Below are positions 55,177 through 64,000 of a stretch of DNA of 64,000 nucleotides, one piece after another (the stretch's first letter is position 1; every line of letters begins with the position of its first letter). The stretch comes from Dolomitihabitans soli (GTDB lineage Bacteria > Actinomycetota > Actinomycetes > Streptosporangiales > Streptosporangiaceae), in NCBI RefSeq assembly GCF_022213955.1, contig NZ_JAKNTW010000005.1, forward strand, positions 496,001 to 560,000, given 5' to 3'. The translations under genes were made by a program, and so were the position numbers. Below the pieces are notes generated by a model. It made no database searches. It saw nothing but the letters and a program-made list of their open reading frames with translations, and was not told where the DNA came from.

Positions 55177-56361
55177 ATGGAGCGCACGCAAAGGGAGAAT
55201 GATCCTCCGCCGGGCTCGGTTTTCCAGGGGTCGTCTCCCAAGCTGTGGCTCGACGCCGCCGCGTCGGCCTCGACCGGTGTCGCGATCTCGGCGCTGACCT
55301 TTGCCGGCATCTCCGGATCAGGTCAGGGACACGTGTTCGGCGGGCTGGTCTGGTTACTGGCGTTACTCGCACTGCACGCCCGACTGCTTGTGAAGGCGCT
55401 CAAGAAGCAAACGGTGGAATGGTGGGCGATCGCCCTGGAGGCGCTGCTGGCGTTTCTGCCGTTACTGGTTCTCGGGCCGGGCTGGGCGCCCGCCTGCGGG
55501 CTGCCGGTCGGCACCTTGCTGCTGGCCGCCTACCGGAGACGCCTGCCGGCGCTCGCGCTGGCCGGGCTCACCAGCGGTCCCCTCCTGCTCGTCCTGTCGG
55601 CGGTGGCGGCGTCCGGTGACCCGCCGCCGGACTGGACCGCGAGCTGGGCCGTGGGCCGGTCCCTGGCCTGGGCGGTGGCGGGGCCGGCGCTCGGCCTGGC
55701 GGAGTGCGCCTGGGTCCTCCTCGCGGGGCGGCTCGCGACCGGGCGGACCGAGCTGGTCCGCAACGCGCTGTCCCAGGAGCGCCGCAGGTTCAGCCGTGAC
55801 CTGCACGACCTGGTCGGGCACCGGCTGACCGTGCTGGTCCTGAAGGCCGAGCTCATCCAGCGGTTGCTGGACTCCGGCGACCGCAAGCTGCACGACGAGG
55901 TGCAGGAGGTCCTGCAGTTGCTGCGGGGGATGACCGGTGACGTCCGCTCCGTGGCGCACGGGTCGCCGTGCTCCTCGCTGGCGGCGGAGCTGGACTCGGC
56001 GCGTGCGGTGCTGGAGTCGATCGAGGTGCGGTGCCAGGTCGAGGTGTCGTGCCGGACCCTCGCCGCCGAGGCGACGGAGGTGCTCGCCCACGTCCTGCGC
56101 GAGGGCGTGACCAACATCCTGCGGCACGCCAGGGCCAGGGAGTGCGTCATCCACCTGGTCGAACAGGACGGAGTCGTCGAGCTCTCGATGACGAACGACG
56201 GGGTGGTGGCCGCGCGCGAGGGGGCGCGCGACGGGCAGGGCCTGCGGAATCTGCGGGACCGCATGGCCGAACTCGGCGGCCACCTGACGGCCGGCGATCT
56301 CCCCGAAGGGCGATTCCGACTTATCGCACATTTCATGCACAAATCTAAGATTTCATCGTAA
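55177..56361 (+). CDS. Orphan sensor histidine kinase (HisKA_3/NarL-partner type) with TTA codons
   Basis: The 394-residue protein has five or six N-terminal membrane helices (residues about 25-180), then a HisKA_3 dimerisation domain with phospho-acceptor His210 in RRRFSRDLHDLVGHRL and a short HATPase domain (LREGVTNILRHARA, DGQGLRNLRDRM). Kinases of this type phosphorylate NarL/LuxR-type regulators, but none is encoded in the window. It contains three TTA leucine codons (residues 60, 63 and 96). These are rare in such G+C-rich genomes and in Streptomyces depend on the developmental tRNA bldA. ATG 55177 is the likely start; ATG 55129 upstream is possible. Its position just before lanKC suggests it controls the cluster. 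Confidence 0.85.
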   Translation: MERTQRENDPPPGSVFQGSSPKLWLDAAASASTGVAISALTFAGISGSGQGHVFGGLVWLLALLALHARLLVKALKKQTVEWWAIALEALLAFLPLLVLGPGWAPACGLPVGTLLLAAYRRRLPALALAGLTSGPLLLVLSAVAASGDPPPDWTASWAVGRSLAWAVAGPALGLAECAWVLLAGRLATGRTELVRNALSQERRRFSRDLHDLVGHRLTVLVLKAELIQRLLDSGDRKLHDEVQEVLQLLRGMTGDVRSVAHGSPCSSLAAELDSARAVLESIEVRCQVEVSCRTLAAEATEVLAHVLREGVTNILRHARARECVIHLVEQDGVVELSMTNDGVVAAREGARDGQGLRNLRDRMAELGGHLTAGDLPEGRFRLIAHFMHKSKISS

Positions 56362-56511
56362 ATAAGTCAATTTGCACAAATACCTTAAACTATTATGTGA
56401 AATCCATGTTAGGCATGTGCGATATGTGTGTTCAGGTAATGTAATGTGTAACTAGACGGAAAAGCTCCCGATCGACATTCTCTAAGAGGGTTTCGAGCGG
56501 GAGGGCGTGGG
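56362..56511 (+). promoter_or_regulatory. A+T-rich control region of the lanthipeptide operon
   Basis: Bases 56341-56460 contain only about one third G+C, in sharp contrast to the rest. Several -10-like motifs (TAAACT at 56386, TATTAT at 56391) and direct repeats (TAATGTAATG; ATGTG repeated) are present, but no single promoter is clear. This is the obvious place for a RamR-like activator to bind. GCGGGAGGG serves ATG 56512. Confidence 0.6.
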
Positions 56512-59118
56512 ATGGACCAATACGAGCTGTACTGCCTGGCCGATCCTTTCTTCTATGACACGCTTGAGCACAGCGAGGTAGAGGGCGCCGATTTTTCCAT
56601 AGCCGGCGAGCCGCTCCCCGAAGGTTGGGCACATCACCCATCCGACACCTGGCTCTATTATGCGCCGGGCGGCGAGGCGCCCCTTCCCGCGCAGGGCTGG
56701 AAAATCCACGTGTCGGCCCGGATGGAGGATGCCGAACGGGCGCTGGCGATCGTGTGGGACTACTGCGTGACCCGTGGGATCGCGTTCAAGTTCCTGCGCG
56801 GCGCCCCCATCGTGATCATGCTGAACTCCAAGGCCGCCTCCCGGGCGTCGAGCGGCAAGCTGGTCACGATCTACCCGCGAGACGTCGACCAGCTCGAACT
56901 CATCCTGAAGGACCTCCACGAGCTGCTGCGCGGCATCACCGGCCCCTACATCCTCAGCGATCTTCGCTACGCGGAAGGCCCCCTCTACGTGAGGTACGGC
57001 GGTTTCGCCGAGCGCCACTGCGTGACCGAGGCCGGGGAACGCGTGCTGGCGGTCGAGGACGGCGCCGGGCGGCTGGTCCCCGACGTGCGCCACGCGATCT
57101 TCTCGATCCCGCCGTGGACGGCGCTGCCCGGGTTCCTCCAGCCCCATCTCGACAGCCGCAACACCGTGACGACGCACGACATGCCGTACACCGTGGAGAG
57201 CGTGCTGCAGTTCTCCAACGGCGGAGGGGTCTATCTCGCCAGGGACGGGCGCACCGGCGAGCAGGTGGTGCTGAAGGAGGGGAGACCGCACGCGGGGCTC
57301 GACGCGGCCGGCCGGGACGCGGTGACGCGCCTGGCGCACGAGCGGGACATCCTCGAACGCCTCGCCGGGCTGGACGGCGTGCCGGCCCTGCACGACTACT
57401 TCACCCTCGGCGAGCACCACTTCCTCGTCCAGGAGTTCATCGACGGCACCTCGCTGCAGAGCCGCCTGGTGCACCGGTTCCCGCTGACCAGGGCGACCTG
57501 CACACCGGAGGTGCTCGCGGAGTACACGCGGTGGGCGATGGACACGGTCGACGACGTGGAGCGGGTCGTGGCGTCCCTGCACGGGCGGGGAGTGGTCTTC
57601 GGCGACCTGCACCCCGACAACGTGCTCCTCATGGAGAGCGGCCGGGTGGTCATGATCGACTACGAGGTGGCCACCCTCGCGGACGAAGGCGGCCGCGCGG
57701 CGCTCGCGCATCCGGCGTTCAACGCCCCCCGGGACCGGCAAGGGGTCGACGTCGACACCTACTCGCTGGCCTGTCTGCGGCTCGGGTTGTTCGCCCCGCA
57801 GTGCACGATCATGCTGCCGCTGCACCGGGCGAAGGCACGGCACCTCGGCCGGCTCGTCACCGAGATCTTCCCGGTGCCGCCGCCGGCGATCGAGGCGGCG
57901 GTCGCCACGATCATGGGCGACGGCGACCATCCCGAGACGCCGGACCCGCCGATGCCCGGCACGGACTCCTGGCCGGACGTGCGCGACGCGATGTGCCGCG
58001 CCATCCGGAGCGCCGCGACGCCCGACCGCGAGGACCGGCTCTTCCCGGGCGACATCGCGCAGTTCGAGCCCGGCCACGGACTGAACTTCGCGCACGGCGC
58101 CGCCGGGGTCCTCTACGCGCTGACGTCGGTCGGCGCCGGACGTCTCCCCGAGTACGAGGAGTGGCTGTGCGCCCGCTCGGCGACGCCCGTGCCGGGCTCG
58201 GGGCTCGGCTTCTACGACGGGCTGCACGGCATCGCCCACGTCCTCGACCTGCTCGGTCGCCGGCAGGAGGCGCTCGACGTCGTCGAGATCTGCATGCGCG
58301 AGAAGGTGGAAGGGCTCCAGCCCGCGCTGTTCTCCGGCCTGTCCGGCATCGGCCTGAACCTCCTGCACCTGGGCGAGACCACCGGTGAGCACGAGCTGAC
58401 GCGCACCGCGCACCGCGTCGTGGACATCTGCGCCGACCGGCTCGGCGGTCCCGAGGACGTGCCGGAACTCAGCGGCGGCACCCGTCCGCGCGCCGGCCTC
58501 ATGTACGGCTCGGCGGGTCCCGCCCTGCTGTTCCTGCACGCCTACGAGCAGACGGGCGACGCCGCCCTGCTCGACCTCGCCGAGGTGGCGCTGCGTCAGG
58601 ACCTCCGCCGGTGCCGCCTGGCCGACGACGGCTCGCGCCAGGTGGACCAGGGCTGGCGGCTGCTGCCCTACCTCGACGAGGGTTCCGTCGGCATCGGCGT
58701 GGTCCTCGCCCGCTACCTGGCCCACCGCGAGGACGAGTCCTTCGCGGTCGCGCTGGCGGAGCTGCGGAAGGTGGCGCGGTCGCGTTACTTCGTGCAGTCG
58801 GGACTGTTCACCGGCCGGGCCGGCATCATCGCCGCGCTGGGCACGGGACTGCGCCCGCCCGGTCAGGGTCCCGACGACCTCATCGACGACCTCATCGACG
58901 ACCAGGTCCACGGCCTGCGGTGGCACGCGCTGCCGTACGGCGGGGGCCTGGCCTTCCCCGGAGACCAGATGCTCCGGCTCTCCATGGATTTCTCGACTGG
59001 AACGGCAGGTGTCCTGTTCGCGCTCGGCGTGGTTCTGTCCGAGCGGCCGGTGAGCCTGCCCTTCCTCGGGCCCGCGATCCCGCGGTCCCGTCACGACGAG
59101 CACAGGAAGGGGGTGTAA
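56512..59118 (+). CDS. Class III lanthipeptide synthetase (LanKC, RamC/AmfT-like)
   Basis: This 868-residue enzyme phosphorylates Ser/Thr of the precursor, eliminates phosphate and forms lanthionine or labionin rings. The N-terminal lyase domain has WKIHVSA with catalytic Lys64 and His66. The kinase domain has ATP-binding Lys255, catalytic Asp365 in FGDLHPDNV and metal-binding Asp383 in MIDYE. The C-terminal LanC-like cyclase (about 520-850) has GLMYGSAGPA and QSGLFTGRAG where zinc-dependent cyclases have CysGly and CysHis, so zinc ligands are absent, the class III hallmark. Full length for the family. It is followed after 5 bp by the first precursor gene, sharing the transcript. The start has GGAGGG upstream. 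Confidence 0.96.
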   Translation: MDQYELYCLADPFFYDTLEHSEVEGADFSIAGEPLPEGWAHHPSDTWLYYAPGGEAPLPAQGWKIHVSARMEDAERALAIVWDYCVTRGIAFKFLRGAPIVIMLNSKAASRASSGKLVTIYPRDVDQLELILKDLHELLRGITGPYILSDLRYAEGPLYVRYGGFAERHCVTEAGERVLAVEDGAGRLVPDVRHAIFSIPPWTALPGFLQPHLDSRNTVTTHDMPYTVESVLQFSNGGGVYLARDGRTGEQVVLKEGRPHAGLDAAGRDAVTRLAHERDILERLAGLDGVPALHDYFTLGEHHFLVQEFIDGTSLQSRLVHRFPLTRATCTPEVLAEYTRWAMDTVDDVERVVASLHGRGVVFGDLHPDNVLLMESGRVVMIDYEVATLADEGGRAALAHPAFNAPRDRQGVDVDTYSLACLRLGLFAPQCTIMLPLHRAKARHLGRLVTEIFPVPPPAIEAAVATIMGDGDHPETPDPPMPGTDSWPDVRDAMCRAIRSAATPDREDRLFPGDIAQFEPGHGLNFAHGAAGVLYALTSVGAGRLPEYEEWLCARSATPVPGSGLGFYDGLHGIAHVLDLLGRRQEALDVVEICMREKVEGLQPALFSGLSGIGLNLLHLGETTGEHELTRTAHRVVDICADRLGGPEDVPELSGGTRPRAGLMYGSAGPALLFLHAYEQTGDAALLDLAEVALRQDLRRCRLADDGSRQVDQGWRLLPYLDEGSVGIGVVLARYLAHREDESFAVALAELRKVARSRYFVQSGLFTGRAGIIAALGTGLRPPGQGPDDLIDDLIDDQVHGLRWHALPYGGGLAFPGDQMLRLSMDFSTGTAGVLFALGVVLSERPVSLPFLGPAIPRSRHDEHRKGV

Positions 59119-59123
59119 ACGAC

Positions 59124-59255
59124 ATGGTCCTTCTCGACCTCCAGGGTCTCGAGGCTCCTTCGAGCAGTGACGTCGCCAGCGGCGGCAGCACGCTCACGGT
59201 CCTCGGTTGCAACTCGCACAAGCCGAGCAACCTCAGTGTGCTGCTCTGCCACTAG
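59124..59255 (+). CDS. Class III lanthipeptide precursor, copy 1 (SapB-like)
   Basis: This 43-residue peptide has a leader MVLLDLQGLEAP with the conserved LxxLQ-type recognition motif (LLDLQ) of class III precursors, and a core carrying two Ser/Thr-x2-Ser/Thr-x3-Cys motifs: STLTVLGC (residues 22-29) and SNLSVLLC (residues 35-42). The spacing is the same as in SapB (RamS). The single leader proline (Pro12) is the expected cut site of the prolyl oligopeptidase encoded downstream. It starts 5 bp after the synthetase gene and is identical to copy 2. The mature product is probably a two-ring, amphiphilic peptide of 25-31 residues with morphogenetic or surfactant properties. Confidence 0.95.
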   Translation: MVLLDLQGLEAPSSSDVASGGSTLTVLGCNSHKPSNLSVLLCH

Positions 59256-59264
59256 TCACACTTT

Positions 59265-59292
59265 CCCCGGGCGTCCCACGGGCCGCCCGGGG
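59265..59292 (+). terminator. Hairpin after precursor copy 1 (imperfect)
   Basis: CCCCGGGCGTCC pairs with GGGCCGCCCGGGG with one mismatch compared with the perfect hairpin after copy 2. It probably acts as an attenuator that lets part of the transcripts continue and stabilises the precursor mRNA. Confidence 0.65.
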
Positions 59293-59312
59293 CCCACAAG
59301 GGGGTAAACGAC

Positions 59313-59444
59313 ATGGTCCTTCTCGACCTCCAGGGTCTCGAGGCTCCTTCGAGCAGTGACGTCGCCAGCGGCGGCAGCACGCTCACGGTCCTCGGTTGCA
59401 ACTCGCACAAGCCGAGCAACCTCAGTGTGCTGCTCTGCCACTAG
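59313..59444 (+). CDS. Class III lanthipeptide precursor, copy 2 (identical to copy 1)
   Basis: This 43-residue gene is base-for-base identical to the one at 59124, including its codon choices. GGGGGTAAACGAC precedes ATG 59313, as in copy 1 apart from a small deletion. Because the proteins are identical, the duplication would raise precursor dose rather than diversify the product. It lies 60 bp before the first ABC transporter gene, separated by a perfect hairpin. Confidence 0.95.
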   Translation: MVLLDLQGLEAPSSSDVASGGSTLTVLGCNSHKPSNLSVLLCH

Positions 59445-59453
59445 TAACACCTT

Positions 59454-59481
59454 CCCCGGGCGGCCCACGGGCCGCCCGGGG
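59454..59481 (+). terminator. Perfect hairpin between precursor copy 2 and ABC genes
   Basis: CCCCGGGCGGCC / GGCCGCCCGGGG with a CACG loop (12-bp stem). It sits 23 bp before GTG 59505 and probably terminates most transcripts, so that far more precursor than transporter is made. Confidence 0.75.
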
Positions 59482-59504
59482 CCCTGTCTTAGAAGGAGGG
59501 TCCC

Positions 59505-61172
59505 GTGCGCGCGGCAGACCGCCTGGTGATCGAGGCCGTACGGCGAGGCGGGCCCTGGCCGTCCGTGCTCGCGGTGGCGGCGGGGGCCGGCACCGCGGGC
59601 GAACTGGCCCTTCCCATCACGGCCGGCATGGCCATCGACGCGATGGTCACCGGCGCGCCGGACCGGACCGCCTGGCTGATCGCCTGCGCCGCGATCGTCG
59701 TCGGCGTCATGGTGTGCGAGACCGTCGCGGTCTGGGCGAGAGGCGTGAGCGGCGCGCAGGCCTCGGCCCGGATGCGCCGCCGGATCCTGCGCCACGTCCT
59801 CGGCGTCGGCCCCTCGATCAAGGGCCGGTTCGCCGAGGGAGACCTCGTCACCCGCGCGGGAATGAACGCCGAGGAGGTCGGCAGGGCCCCTGAGGCGCTG
59901 ATCAGCGGGCTGACCCTGCTGGTCCCGACCGTCGGCGGCCTGGTGGCCCTGACCCTCATCGACCCCGTCCTGACTCTGACCCTCGCCGTCGGCATCGCGG
60001 TCATCCTGCTGATCCTGCGGGCCTTCCTGCGGGCGAGCACCACGGTCGCGGGCGACTACCAGAACGTGCAGGGGGAGATCGCCGGACGCCTGCTCGACGC
60101 GCTGGAGGGCGCGCGCACGATCGCCGCGACGGGCACCGCGGAGCAGGAGGCGCGGCGGGTACTCCGCCCGCTGCCCCGCCTGCGCGCCCACGGCCTGGAG
60201 TTGTGGCGGGTCACCGCGACCGCCGGGGTACGGGCCGGGATCATGGTGCCGGTGCTGGAGGTGGCCGTGATCGCGGTGGGCGGCCTGCGTCTGGCCGCGG
60301 GCGAGCTCACCGTCGGGCAGCTGTACGCGGCGGCGCGCTACGCCGTGCTGGGGGCGGCGCTGAGCACGGCGCTCGGCTACGTCGGACGGCTGGCCCGGGC
60401 CCGCTCCGCCGCCGCACGGGTCGCCGATCTGCTCGCCGTACCCGCCACCGGCTACGGGACGCGGGTGCTCCCGCCGGGTTCGGGCCGGGTGGAGTTCGAG
60501 GAGGTGGCCGTGCCCGGCCTGGAGGTGCGCGGGCTGGTCCTCGCCGGCGGGTCGGCCACCGCGGTGGTCGGGCGGTCGGGAGCGGGCAAGTCGTTGCTCG
60601 CCGCCGTCGCCGGGCGGCTGGTGGACCCGGCGCGCGGCACCGTCCGGCTGGACGGGGTGCCGCTGCCCGAACTCGCCCAGGGGGAACTGCGGCGGGCGGT
60701 GGGGTTCGCCTTCGAACGGCCGGTCCTGGTGGGCGACACGGTCGGCGAGGCGATCGGGATGGGCGCGGCCGATCCCGGGAGCGTGCACGCCGCGGCGACG
60801 GCCGCCTGCGCCGACGGGTTCATCAGAAGACTTCCCGACGGGTACGACACCCCGCCGGACGACGCCCCCATGTCGGTCGGCGAACGCCAGCGGATCGGGC
60901 TGGCCCGCGCGTTCGCCCAGGCGGAACGGCTGCTCGTACTCGACGACGCCACCTCCAGCCTGGACACGGTGACCGAACGGCAGGTGGCCCGGACGCTCAC
61001 CGGAGCGTCCGACGGCCGTACCCGGCTGATCGTGGCGCACCGGCCCGCCACCGCGGCCCGCGCCGACCAGGTGGTCTGGCTGGACGCGGGCCGGGTACGC
61101 GCCCAGGGCCCGCACCGCGTGCTGTGGGAGGACCCCGACTACCGCGCGGTCTTCCAGGCGGCGGCACCATGA
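59505..61172 (+). CDS. ABC transporter, fused permease/ATPase (RamA-like)
   Basis: The 555-residue half-transporter has six membrane helices (residues about 20-300) and a C-terminal ATPase with Walker A GRSGAGKS (356-363), a degenerate signature MSVGERQ, and Walker B LLVLDDATSSLD. It forms a heterodimer with the next gene product to export the modified peptide. This matches the ramAB/amfBA layout of SapB-type clusters. GTG 59505 is preceded by GAAGGAGGG. The stop overlaps the next start (ATGA). Confidence 0.93.
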   Translation: MRAADRLVIEAVRRGGPWPSVLAVAAGAGTAGELALPITAGMAIDAMVTGAPDRTAWLIACAAIVVGVMVCETVAVWARGVSGAQASARMRRRILRHVLGVGPSIKGRFAEGDLVTRAGMNAEEVGRAPEALISGLTLLVPTVGGLVALTLIDPVLTLTLAVGIAVILLILRAFLRASTTVAGDYQNVQGEIAGRLLDALEGARTIAATGTAEQEARRVLRPLPRLRAHGLELWRVTATAGVRAGIMVPVLEVAVIAVGGLRLAAGELTVGQLYAAARYAVLGAALSTALGYVGRLARARSAAARVADLLAVPATGYGTRVLPPGSGRVEFEEVAVPGLEVRGLVLAGGSATAVVGRSGAGKSLLAAVAGRLVDPARGTVRLDGVPLPELAQGELRRAVGFAFERPVLVGDTVGEAIGMGAADPGSVHAAATAACADGFIRRLPDGYDTPPDDAPMSVGERQRIGLARAFAQAERLLVLDDATSSLDTVTERQVARTLTGASDGRTRLIVAHRPATAARADQVVWLDAGRVRAQGPHRVLWEDPDYRAVFQAAAP

Positions 61173-63034
61173 GCCGCGACCCGGGGCCGGGCGCACCCCA
61201 CCACGAACTCGACGAGGACGGCCCGCGGGCAGACCGGCCCGGGACCGAAGACGGCGACCCGCGGGTGAGTCAGCCTGGGATCGAAGCGGACGGCCCGCGC
61301 GCCCGCCGGCGGGGGACGGACGCGGGCGGTGACTGGCCGGTGATCGGGCCTGGCGCGCTGCTCTACGGGACCCTGCGGCGCAGGCCCGCGCGGCTGCTGC
61401 GGATCGCGGGCTGGTCGGTGGTGGAGGCGGCGCCGGCGTTCGTCATCGGGCTCGCCGTCGCACGCGCCATCGAGGACGGGTTCGCGGCGGGCCGCCCGGC
61501 GACCGGGCTGGCCTGGCTGGCGCTGCTGGGCGGCACCTGGCTGGTGGCCGCGGTCGGCGCCCGCCAGGTGATCCTCGCGGTCGCCGCCGTGGCCGAGCCC
61601 TTCCGCGACGAACTGCTCGGCCACGTCGTAGCGGGAGCCATGCGGCGGGCCACGGCCTCGTTCCGGTCCGCTGGGCCGGGCAGCGCGGCCGTGGCCCGTG
61701 CGAACCTTCAGGTCGAACTGGCCAGGGACTCGTTCGCCGCGGTCGTCACCGTGGTGCGGAGCTTCCTGTTCACCCTGGTGGGCGTCGTGCTCGGCATGCT
61801 GACCCTCGTTCCCGAAGCCCTGGTGCTCGCCCTGCCGCCGTTCGCGGTGGGGCTGGCGCTCTTCCTGCTGTCGCTGCCCGCCCTGGCCCGGAGGCAGCGG
61901 GAGTTCCTGCTGGCCGACGAGCGGACCGCGGAGGCGCTGAGCTCGATGGCCGGCGGCCTGCGCGACATCGCCGCCTGCGGCGCGGAGGACACCGTCGGGA
62001 ACGGGACGGAGCGGGCGGTGGCGGCGCAGGCCGCCGCGGCCAGACGGCTGGCGCGGGTCACCGCCGTGCGTACGGCGGCGCTCGCCGTGGGCGCGGGACT
62101 GCCCGTCCTGCTGGTCCTGGCCGGCACGCCGTGGCTGCTGAGCACAGGCGCGGGCGCGGGCACCGTCGTGGGCGTGCTCGCCTACGTCACGCAGTCGCTC
62201 GGGCCGGCGCTCGGCGGCCTCGTGGAGGGTCTCGGGGTCAGCGGCGTCGCACTGGTGACCTCTCTCGGCCGGATACTCAGGTCGCTCCCGCCGGCCGTAC
62301 CCGTGATCGCGCGGGCGGTGCCGCAGGGCGACGACCTGAGCCTGCGCGCCGTCACCTTCGCGTACGGCCCGCACGCCGAACCTGTCGTGGACCGGCTCGA
62401 CCTCGTCGTCCCCGCCGGGGACCATCTCGCGATCGTGGGCCCGAGCGGCGCCGGCAAGTCCACGCTGGCGGCGCTCATCACGGGGGTGCTCCCGCCGGAC
62501 GCCGGAGAGATCCGGCTCGGCGGCGTCCTGGCGGGCGAGGTGGTCCCGGCCGCGCGGGTGCTGATCCCGCAGGAGGCGTACGTCTTCCGGGGCACGCTGG
62601 CGGAGAACTTCGGATTCCTGGCCGACGTCCCGCAGGCGGACATGGCGGCGGCCGTGCGGGCGCTGGGCGCCGGCGAGCTGGTCACCCGTTGCGGCGGCTA
62701 CCAGGCCGAGATCGACCCGGCGGCGCTCTCGGCCGGTCAGCGGCAGCTGGTCGCCCTGGTCCGCGCCTACCTCGCGCCCGCCCGCATGGTCGTGCTCGAC
62801 GAGGCTACCTGCCATCTCGATCCCGCCGCCGAGGAACGCGTGGAGCGGGCGTTCGCGTCGCGCGGCGGCACCCTGATCGTGGTCGCCCACCGCCTCAGCT
62901 CGGCGGTGCGCGCCCGGCACGTCCTGCTCGTGGACGGCACGCGGGTGCTGAAGGGCACCCACGACGAGCTCGTCCGCGCCGTCCCCCTGTACGCCGACCT
63001 CGTCGGCCACTGGCAACCGGAGCCCGTTTCATGA
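61169..63034 (+). CDS. ABC transporter, fused permease/ATPase (RamB-like)
   Basis: The 621-residue partner has an unusual 55-residue N-terminal low-complexity extension rich in Asp, Gly, Pro and Arg, then six membrane helices and an ATPase domain with Walker A GPSGAGKS (424-431), signature LSAGQRQ and Walker B MVVLDEATCHLD. In heterodimeric exporters one subunit often has the canonical signature and the other a degenerate one, as seen here. It overlaps both neighbours by 4 bp. The hydrophobic cargo is most likely the lanthipeptide. Confidence 0.93.
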   Translation: MSRDPGPGAPHHELDEDGPRADRPGTEDGDPRVSQPGIEADGPRARRRGTDAGGDWPVIGPGALLYGTLRRRPARLLRIAGWSVVEAAPAFVIGLAVARAIEDGFAAGRPATGLAWLALLGGTWLVAAVGARQVILAVAAVAEPFRDELLGHVVAGAMRRATASFRSAGPGSAAVARANLQVELARDSFAAVVTVVRSFLFTLVGVVLGMLTLVPEALVLALPPFAVGLALFLLSLPALARRQREFLLADERTAEALSSMAGGLRDIAACGAEDTVGNGTERAVAAQAAAARRLARVTAVRTAALAVGAGLPVLLVLAGTPWLLSTGAGAGTVVGVLAYVTQSLGPALGGLVEGLGVSGVALVTSLGRILRSLPPAVPVIARAVPQGDDLSLRAVTFAYGPHAEPVVDRLDLVVPAGDHLAIVGPSGAGKSTLAALITGVLPPDAGEIRLGGVLAGEVVPAARVLIPQEAYVFRGTLAENFGFLADVPQADMAAAVRALGAGELVTRCGGYQAEIDPAALSAGQRQLVALVRAYLAPARMVVLDEATCHLDPAAEERVERAFASRGGTLIVVAHRLSSAVRARHVLLVDGTRVLKGTHDELVRAVPLYADLVGHWQPEPVS

Positions 63035-64000
63035 GATATCCAGAGTCGAAGCGATCGCCGATCACCGAGGAGATCCACGGCCACCAGGTGAGCGACCCCT
63101 ACCGGTGGCTGGAGGACCCGTCGGCGTCCCGGGAGTGGCTGGCGGCCCAGGACGAACTGTGGCACGCGCAGGCCGGCGGGCTGTCCTCGCGTGAACGTTT
63201 CAGGGCGCGGCTCACCGAGCTCGGCGCCATCGGGACGGTCACCCCCCCGGTGTGGTCCGGCGAGCGCTGTTTCGTCCTGCGGCGCGCGCCCGGCGAGGAA
63301 CACCCGGTGTTGTACTGCGACGACGAGGTCCTGCTCGACCCCATGCGGATCGACCCCGGCGGCCTGACGACGCTGGACGACTGGCAGCCCGACCCCACCG
63401 GCGAACTGATCGCCTACCAGCTCTCCAGGGGCGGGGACGAGAAGGCGAGCCTGTACGTCATGGACGTCCGCACCGGGAAGATCGTCGACGGCCCGATCGG
63501 CGGCTGCCGCTATTCCCCCGTGGCCTGGCCGGCGGCGGACGCCTTCTACTACGTACGGTTCCAGCAGGGGATCTTCCTGCACAGGCTCGGCACGCCGCCG
63601 GAGACCGACGTGACCGTCTTCACCGCCGGGCAGGGCCTCTCCTACGGGCTGGCGATCAGCGCCGACCGCCGCTGGCTCACGATCTCGGCGGCGCAGGGGG
63701 CCTCGGCGCCCAACGACCTGTGGCTGGCCGACCTCTCGACCGGCGGGTGCCCGCCGGAGATGCGGGTGATCCAGCGGGGAGTGGCGGCGCGCACCGCGGC
63801 GGCGGTCGGCCGCGACGGCCGCCTGTACGTGCTGACCGACCGGGACGCGCCCCGGCGGCGGCTCTGCGTGGCGGACCCGGCCAGCCCGCAGGAGTGGGCG
63901 GAACTGATCCCGGAGGACCCGGAGGCGGTGCTCGGCGCCTTCACGATCGTCGACGGGCCGGATGGGGAACGACCCCGGCTGCTGGCCGTCCGGATCCGGC
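63031..64000 (+). CDS. Prolyl oligopeptidase (S9A), 3' partial, probable lanthipeptide leader peptidase
   Basis: Only the first 323 residues are in the window. The N-terminus PITEEIHGHQVSDPYRWLED is the hallmark of prolyl oligopeptidase, followed by beta-propeller repeats; the catalytic Ser-Asp-His domain lies beyond the right edge. ATG 63031 overlaps the upstream stop by 4 bp, so it belongs to the lanthipeptide transcript. In the flavipeptin cluster the prolyl oligopeptidase FlaP cuts the modified class III precursor after proline. The only proline in the leader here is Pro12, so cleavage to leave Ser13 at the N-terminus is predicted. No signal peptide is seen, so it may act inside the cell or be released by other means. 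Confidence 0.9.
   Translation, partial: MRYPESKRSPITEEIHGHQVSDPYRWLEDPSASREWLAAQDELWHAQAGGLSSRERFRARLTELGAIGTVTPPVWSGERCFVLRRAPGEEHPVLYCDDEVLLDPMRIDPGGLTTLDDWQPDPTGELIAYQLSRGGDEKASLYVMDVRTGKIVDGPIGGCRYSPVAWPAADAFYYVRFQQGIFLHRLGTPPETDVTVFTAGQGLSYGLAISADRRWLTISAAQGASAPNDLWLADLSTGGCPPEMRVIQRGVAARTAAAVGRDGRLYVLTDRDAPRRRLCVADPASPQEWAELIPEDPEAVLGAFTIVDGPDGERPRLLAVRIR

What the first reader, a model, noticed from the sequence alone, without database searches (positions are those of the whole stretch)
55177..64000. A SapB-like class III lanthipeptide locus with its own prolyl oligopeptidase and sensor kinase
Seen: LanKC with intact lyase and kinase residues and no zinc ligands in the cyclase, two precursor genes, two fused ABC exporters and an S9 peptidase, overlapping or tightly spaced on one strand, preceded by a sensor kinase. 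Known: ramCSAB/amf clusters make SapB-type morphogens, and class III clusters occasionally carry FlaP-like peptidases. Inference: combining SapB-type ring spacing with a dedicated prolyl oligopeptidase is an unusual mix and the precursor core sequence is not one I recognise, so the product is probably a new peptide.
Basis: partly seen in the sequence, partly recalled or inferred. Interest (0 to 1): 0.88.

Follow-up and report, generated by a model that had tools for sequence, protein, structure and literature searches.

The report
Flavipeptin-type lanthipeptide cluster in Streptosporangiaceae
This is an intact gene cluster for a small ring-bearing peptide of a known type (flavipeptin, a cousin of the Streptomyces surface peptide SapB), with the leader-cutting protease that this type normally carries; the set-up is common in its bacterial family, and the one less expected part is a complete two-component switch where Streptomyces has only an orphan regulator.

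Summary
One strand carries a histidine kinase, an intact class III LanKC, two identical 43-aa precursors, two fused ABC exporters and an S9 prolyl oligopeptidase (POP). The POP continues past the window and ends at 65028, followed by a convergent NarL-type response regulator (RR).

The claim of an unusual mix does not hold. The POP sits beside the same LanKC/precursor/exporter set in 48 of 75 assessable related loci, across Nonomuraea, Streptosporangium, Actinomadura, Herbidospora, Kribbella and others. The Kribbella flavida genome, home of flavipeptin and FlaP, holds such a locus: its leader Pro is at -12, where FlaP is reported to cut, and its predicted core matches the window's at 18 of 22 positions. 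The window's exact core was found nowhere else, but a Nonomuraea core matches it at 20 of 22. This is a new member of a known kind.

One side result may matter more. In all 38 distinct RRs from clusters with an upstream kinase, the receiver keeps its five phosphorylation residues. In kinase-less clusters they are eroded (0 of 49 intact among apparent orthologues), as in orphan RamR. The tree shows essentially one split, so coupling is suggestive, not proven.

The parts
55177..56361 (+). membrane histidine kinase (HisKA_3), probable partner of the response regulator beyond the window
   Evidence: Pfam HisKA_3 53.3 bits; H-box His210, N-box EGVTNILRHA, G-box DGQGLRN; syntenic kinase upstream of LanKC in relatives
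56362..56511 (+). intergenic region with a conserved GTGT(A/T)ACTAG element about 60-70 nt before LanKC; candidate promoter or operator
   Evidence: alignment of upstream regions of kinase-bearing loci; function not tested
56512..59118 (+). LanKC, class III lanthionine synthetase (lyase, kinase, zinc-free cyclase)
   Evidence: NF038151 1071 bits; RamC_N, Pkinase, LANC_like; conserved catalytic residues
59124..59255 (+). precursor gene copy 1, MVLLDLQGLEAP/SSSDVASGG/STLTVLGCNSHKPSNLSVLLCH
   Evidence: same protein as copy 2; NF033212 49.1 bits, PF19402 RamS 47.5 bits
59257..59298 (+). strong RNA hairpin after copy 1 (predicted -28 kcal/mol), possible expression attenuator
   Evidence: fold; function inferred
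59313..59444 (+). precursor gene copy 2, nucleotide-identical to copy 1
   Evidence: 132 of 132 nt identical; period 189 bp
59445..59485 (+). strong RNA hairpin after copy 2 (predicted -37 kcal/mol)
59505..61172 (+). ABC exporter 1 (membrane domain fused to ATPase), RamA-type
   Evidence: ABC_membrane and ABC_tran
61169..63034 (+). ABC exporter 2, RamB-type; start overlaps exporter 1 by 4 nt
   Evidence: ABC_tran 74.8 bits
63031..64000 (+). prolyl oligopeptidase (S9, FlaP-like); runs past the window and ends at the equivalent of 65028
   Evidence: Peptidase_S9_N 178 bits, Peptidase_S9 169 bits; best solved relative M. xanthus POP 2bkl; triad S518/D601/H636. The convergent NarL-type response regulator lies at 65014-65619 (-), outside the window (L009:16014-16619)

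Best explanation
This is a functional-looking flavipeptin-type class III lanthipeptide cluster. LanKC binds the LLDLQ leader, phosphorylates and eliminates S22/T25 and S35/S38, and closes two rings on C29 and C42 (lanthionine or labionin; four waters lost). The cluster POP then cuts after Pro12 of the leader, preferring the modified peptide, as FlaP does. The remaining SSSDVASGG stub is trimmed by a general aminopeptidase, the two exporters send the peptide out, and a kinase/regulator pair flanking the operon switches it on. The peptide probably works at the hyphal surface during aerial growth, as SapB does. Shown here: gene content, intact active sites, family membership, synteny and leader Pro. 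Inferred: ring chemistry, cut site, trimming, regulation and function.
For: Family scores for LanKC, RamS-type precursor, POP, exporters and RR. Same operon in Nonomuraea, Streptosporangium, Planomonospora, Microtetraspora, Actinomadura, Acrocarpospora, Herbidospora, and with the POP moved next to the precursor in Kribbella, Jiangella, Nocardioides, Microlunatus, Labedaea. 48 of 48 POP clusters have a leader Pro about 12 residues into the precursor and a core S-x-L-T-x3-C-x-S-x2-P-S-x-x-S-x3-C-H. The K. flavida genome (contig length 7,579,488 bp, equal to the published size) holds L182 with Pro at -12; FlaP is reported to cut after Pro(-12) of modified FlaA (PMC10885120). Cluster POPs are distinct from the single housekeeping POP clade. 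Three M1 peptidases are encoded elsewhere in the genome.
Against: No expression, mass or phenotype data. The FlaA sequence itself was not in a readable paper; L182 is matched to flavipeptin by genome, POP and Pro position. The same leader Pro occurs in most POP-less clusters (21 of 25 with a clear state), so it is not a signature of POP cutting. The core also has a Pro (KP-S) that a POP could cut if the peptide were unmodified. SapB-like function outside Streptomyces is by analogy.
Confidence: 0.88

Rival explanations
1. A SapB/AmfS morphogen cluster proper, in which the neighbouring POP is incidental and the leader is removed by other proteases, as in Streptomyces.
For: Precursor is in the RamS/SapB families; POP-less sister clusters (Microbispora, Sphaerisporangium, Planotetraspora) keep the leader Pro and appear intact; a housekeeping POP 60% identical is encoded elsewhere.
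Against: POP start overlaps exporter 2 by 4 nt, the triad is intact in 48 of 48 loci, the gene is kept across two gene orders, and cluster POPs form lineages separate from housekeeping POPs; FlaP precedent.
Confidence: 0.1
2. The POP also or instead cuts after the core Pro34, splitting the product into two one-ring peptides (residues 22-34 and 35-43).
For: The core Pro directly before the second ring is present in 48 of 48 POP clusters and in 1 of 26 POP-less clusters with a readable core; all 47 distinct PSNLS-type cores keep it.
Against: Only two independent contrasts on the tree, so shared descent explains the pattern; FlaP is reported to cut in the leader; the Ser after Pro34 should be Dha or part of a ring after modification and probably resists cutting (inference).
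Confidence: 0.04
3. A silent or decaying cluster kept by chance, not expressed.
For: No expression data; the identical tandem precursors could be recent or an assembly effect.
Against: All genes open, all active sites intact, strong conservation of the core across genera.
Confidence: 0.05

Closest known systems
Flavipeptin cluster (flaKC/flaA/flaP) of Kribbella flavida DSM 17836
   Same: Class III LanKC, LLDLQ leader with Pro, core STLTVLGC....PSNLS.LLCH, cluster POP, two exporters, convergent NarL-type RR; core 18 of 22 identical, LanKC 60%, POP 57%
   Different: Gene order KC-A-POP-T1-T2 in Kribbella against KC-A-A-T1-T2-POP here; no kinase gene beside the Kribbella cluster and its RR has an eroded receiver (HRDVT at the five phosphorylation positions)
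SapB (ramCSAB-ramR) of Streptomyces coelicolor and AmfS
   Same: RamS/SapB sequence family, RamC-like LanKC, two exporters, NarL-type regulator, two S-x2-S-x3-C motifs
   Different: The ram and amf loci are described as KC, precursor, two transporters and a regulator, without a POP, and RamR is an orphan atypical regulator; core residues differ
Nonomuraea clusters, e.g. N. corallina (L084) and N. cavernae (L103)
   Same: Identical gene order including kinase and RR; core up to 20 of 22 identical
   Different: One precursor copy instead of two; uncharacterised
POP-bearing class III clusters of Streptococcus pneumoniae (LanPB, family III 3) and Brevibacterium
   Same: Class III with a prolyl oligopeptidase
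   Different: Other phyla or families; not compared by sequence here

Membership tests
Class III lanthipeptide synthetase (LanKC) | lyase-kinase-cyclase protein above the family cut-off | tested here: met
   NF038151 1071 bits against a cut-off of 575; class IV model 386 against 650
Class III lanthipeptide synthetase (LanKC) | no zinc ligands in the cyclase | tested here: met
   ThurKC S726/F770/D771 positions are D722/F766/T767
SapB/AmfS (RamS) precursor family | score above curated cut-off | tested here: met
   NF033212 49.1 bits (cut-off 25), PF19402 47.5 bits (cut-off 24.3)
SapB/AmfS (RamS) precursor family | product promotes aerial hyphae | not testable with these tools
   needs culture work
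Flavipeptin-type clusters | FlaP-like S9 POP in the cluster with intact triad | tested here: met
   Peptidase_S9_N and S9, S518/D601/H636, 57% identical to the K. flavida locus POP
Flavipeptin-type clusters | Pro in the leader at the FlaP cut site | tested here: met
   Pro12, ten residues before the core start; -12 in K. flavida L182
Flavipeptin-type clusters | POP cuts only the modified precursor after the leader Pro | not testable with these tools
   biochemistry needed
Flavipeptin-type clusters | labionin or lanthionine ring type | not testable with these tools
   ring type cannot be read from synthetase sequence (PMC13380574)
RamR-like orphan atypical regulator | no partner kinase, eroded receiver residues | tested here: not met
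   kinase directly upstream of LanKC; receiver quintet E8 D9 D54 T82 K104 intact

The most novel reading that the evidence does not exclude
The regulator in RamR position is here a true phosphorylation-switched response regulator driven by the kinase encoded at the other end of the operon. SapB-type clusters then exist in two regulatory states: a complete two-component switch (window, Nonomuraea, Streptosporangium, Microbispora and relatives) and an orphan pseudo-receiver in clusters without the kinase (Kribbella, Micromonospora, Streptomyces). This would give a natural comparison for how RamR-type regulators became phosphorylation-independent, or the reverse.
Probability: 0.55. Interest if true: 0.5.

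Novelty: new member of a known kind. Interest (0 to 1): 0.3.

Why it matters
As a peptide cluster it adds one more flavipeptin analogue and shows that POP-dependent class III clusters are ordinary in Streptosporangiaceae and Kribbella; a 2020 survey states that actinobacterial class III clusters usually lack a protease. If the kinase/regulator split is real, it offers a direct way to test how the control of SapB-type morphogens moved between a phosphorylation switch and an orphan regulator.

Tried and rejected
Leader Pro as a signature of POP use: rejected, because 21 of 25 POP-less clusters with a clear state have it too. Core Pro and POP coupling: perfect but for one locus, yet only two independent contrasts, so not significant. 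The neighbouring TAP-like hydrolase as part of the cluster: seen only in the two nearest genomes, not in Nonomuraea or Kribbella, so left out. Kinase presence and receiver integrity: clean split but about one change on the tree, sign test not significant. An iterated HMM for the RR drifted to wrong ORFs and was discarded (replaced). My first precursor coordinates were one base off, so the family scan for the precursor was void; repeated, and the PRE rows are out of frame and not used. The AplP paper is not held.

Full report
WHAT IS THERE. The window is bases 496001-560000 of contig C56 (581,857 bp) of a 10.8-Mb genome. I fetched the DNA beyond the window. The POP ends at 65028, and a NarL-type response regulator lies convergently at 65014-65619 on the - strand.

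ARE THE PARTS INTACT. LanKC scores 1071 bits against the class III model and falls below the cut-off of the class IV model. Every lyase residue tested by mutation in ThurKC (PMC10604976) has its counterpart here by the alignment, and all are invariant in nine sequences. The zinc-ligand positions carry D722, F766 and T767, so the cyclase is of the metal-free class III kind. The POP belongs to S9, its nearest solved relative is the Myxococcus xanthus enzyme 2bkl, and its triad is conserved in all 48 cluster POPs examined. The precursor is above the cut-offs of both SapB/AmfS models. The two precursor genes are identical in nucleotides and sit in a 189-bp tandem repeat, each followed by a strong predicted hairpin.

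HOW COMMON IS IT. LanKC relatives (E <= 1e-60) occur in 160 of 251 genomes of the family. In 80 named loci from a scan of 84,980 species genomes plus the window, 75 could be judged for a POP: 48 have it. They span Nonomuraea, Streptosporangium, Planomonospora, Microtetraspora, Actinomadura, Actinocorallia, Acrocarpospora, Herbidospora, Kribbella, Jiangella, Nocardioides, Microlunatus and Labedaea. The gene order is KC-A-T1-T2-POP in the first group and KC-A-POP-T1-T2 in Kribbella and its neighbours. A LanKC tree puts the window beside Nonomuraea. The housekeeping POPs form one separate clade, so the cluster enzyme is its own lineage. The claimed unusual mix is therefore the normal state of this cluster type.

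LINK TO FLAVIPEPTIN. The review PMC10885120 reports that FlaP, in the flavipeptin cluster, cuts modified FlaA after Pro(-12). It holds two such clusters. In one (L182) the precursor MALLDLQGLETPGYGHGGHHHGGSTLTVLGCGSQRPSNLSLLLCH has its Pro at -12 if the core begins at STLT. I take this as the flavipeptin locus; the FlaA sequence itself was not readable in an open paper, so this last step is an inference. The window core STLTVLGCNSHKPSNLSVLLCH matches it at 18 of 22 positions and matches Nonomuraea corallina at 20 of 22. No identical core was found.

MECHANISM. By analogy with ThurKC and FlaP: leader-guided phosphorylation and elimination at four Ser/Thr, two rings on C29 and C42, POP cut after Pro12, trimming of SSSDVASGG by aminopeptidases (three M1 enzymes are encoded elsewhere), and export. 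Ring type cannot be read from sequence (PMC13380574). The leader Pro is not diagnostic of POP use, since most POP-less clusters keep it. The core Pro before the second ring tracks POP almost perfectly (48 of 48 against 1 of 26), but the tree offers only two independent contrasts, so no inference on a second cut is warranted.

THE REGULATORS. The RR sits in the RamR position (convergent at the 3' end in 60 of 61 loci). S. coelicolor RamR is an orphan (PMC9739842) and is listed among atypical regulators whose Asp serves dimer formation, not phosphorylation (PMC12632262). Here a kinase gene lies directly upstream of LanKC. Across 91 distinct RR sequences, all 38 from clusters with that kinase keep the five receiver residues (Glu8, Asp or Asn9, Asp54, Thr82, Lys104), while 49 of 50 without it do not; the exception (L192) is only 35% identical, sits on a very long branch and is probably not an orthologue. 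A kinase profile search over the fetched flanks found no kinase directly upstream of LanKC in the kinase-less named loci, and in most of them none at all. The eroded sets differ between lineages (HRDIT in Kribbella, LDDAS in Micromonospora, EEDVK in Streptomyces), as expected for relaxed constraint. On the tree this is nearly a single split, so a causal link is plausible but not demonstrated, and the direction of change is not known.

VERDICT. A well-observed, intact and ordinary member of the flavipeptin branch of SapB-type class III clusters. The peptide sequence is new, the kind is not. The regulator comparison is the part worth following.

Noticed in passing
L009:16014-16619 (window equivalent 65014-65619) and relatives: Receiver phosphorylation residues are intact only in clusters that also carry the upstream kinase; kinase-less clusters have RamR-like eroded receivers.
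   Followed up: yes
L182 and L183 (K. flavida genome, by exact size): The genome holds two flavipeptin-type clusters, each with its own POP; the second has core STLTVLGCGSAKPSNLSLLLCH.
   Followed up: partly
L070 (Planomonospora sp. ID67723) against L071 (P. parontospora): Close relatives with and without POP; the POP-less one lacks both leader Pro and core Pro (core ...STVSLLLCSHHDSTLSAVC).
   Followed up: partly
L086, L088, L090, L091, L080, L083, L085, L107: Microbispora, Planotetraspora and Sphaerisporangium clusters lack POP and share another core, S(N/Q/S)LSL.(G/A)CTPHENSSLS(I/L)(I/L)CG or a near form.
   Followed up: no
window 56362-56511 and upstream regions of related LanKC genes: A conserved GTGT(A/T)ACTAG element upstream of LanKC, a candidate promoter or regulator site.
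   Followed up: no
window 59257-59298 and 59445-59485: Strong GC hairpins after each precursor gene, predicted -28 and -37 kcal/mol, possibly setting precursor against exporter expression.
   Followed up: no
G000 contigs C10 (two), C12, C22, C36, C44, C30: Seven further LanC-like domains in the same genome, outside this cluster.
   Followed up: no
L009:16783-18297: A TAP-like alpha/beta hydrolase with a lipoprotein-like start follows the regulator; conserved only in the two nearest genomes.
   Followed up: partly
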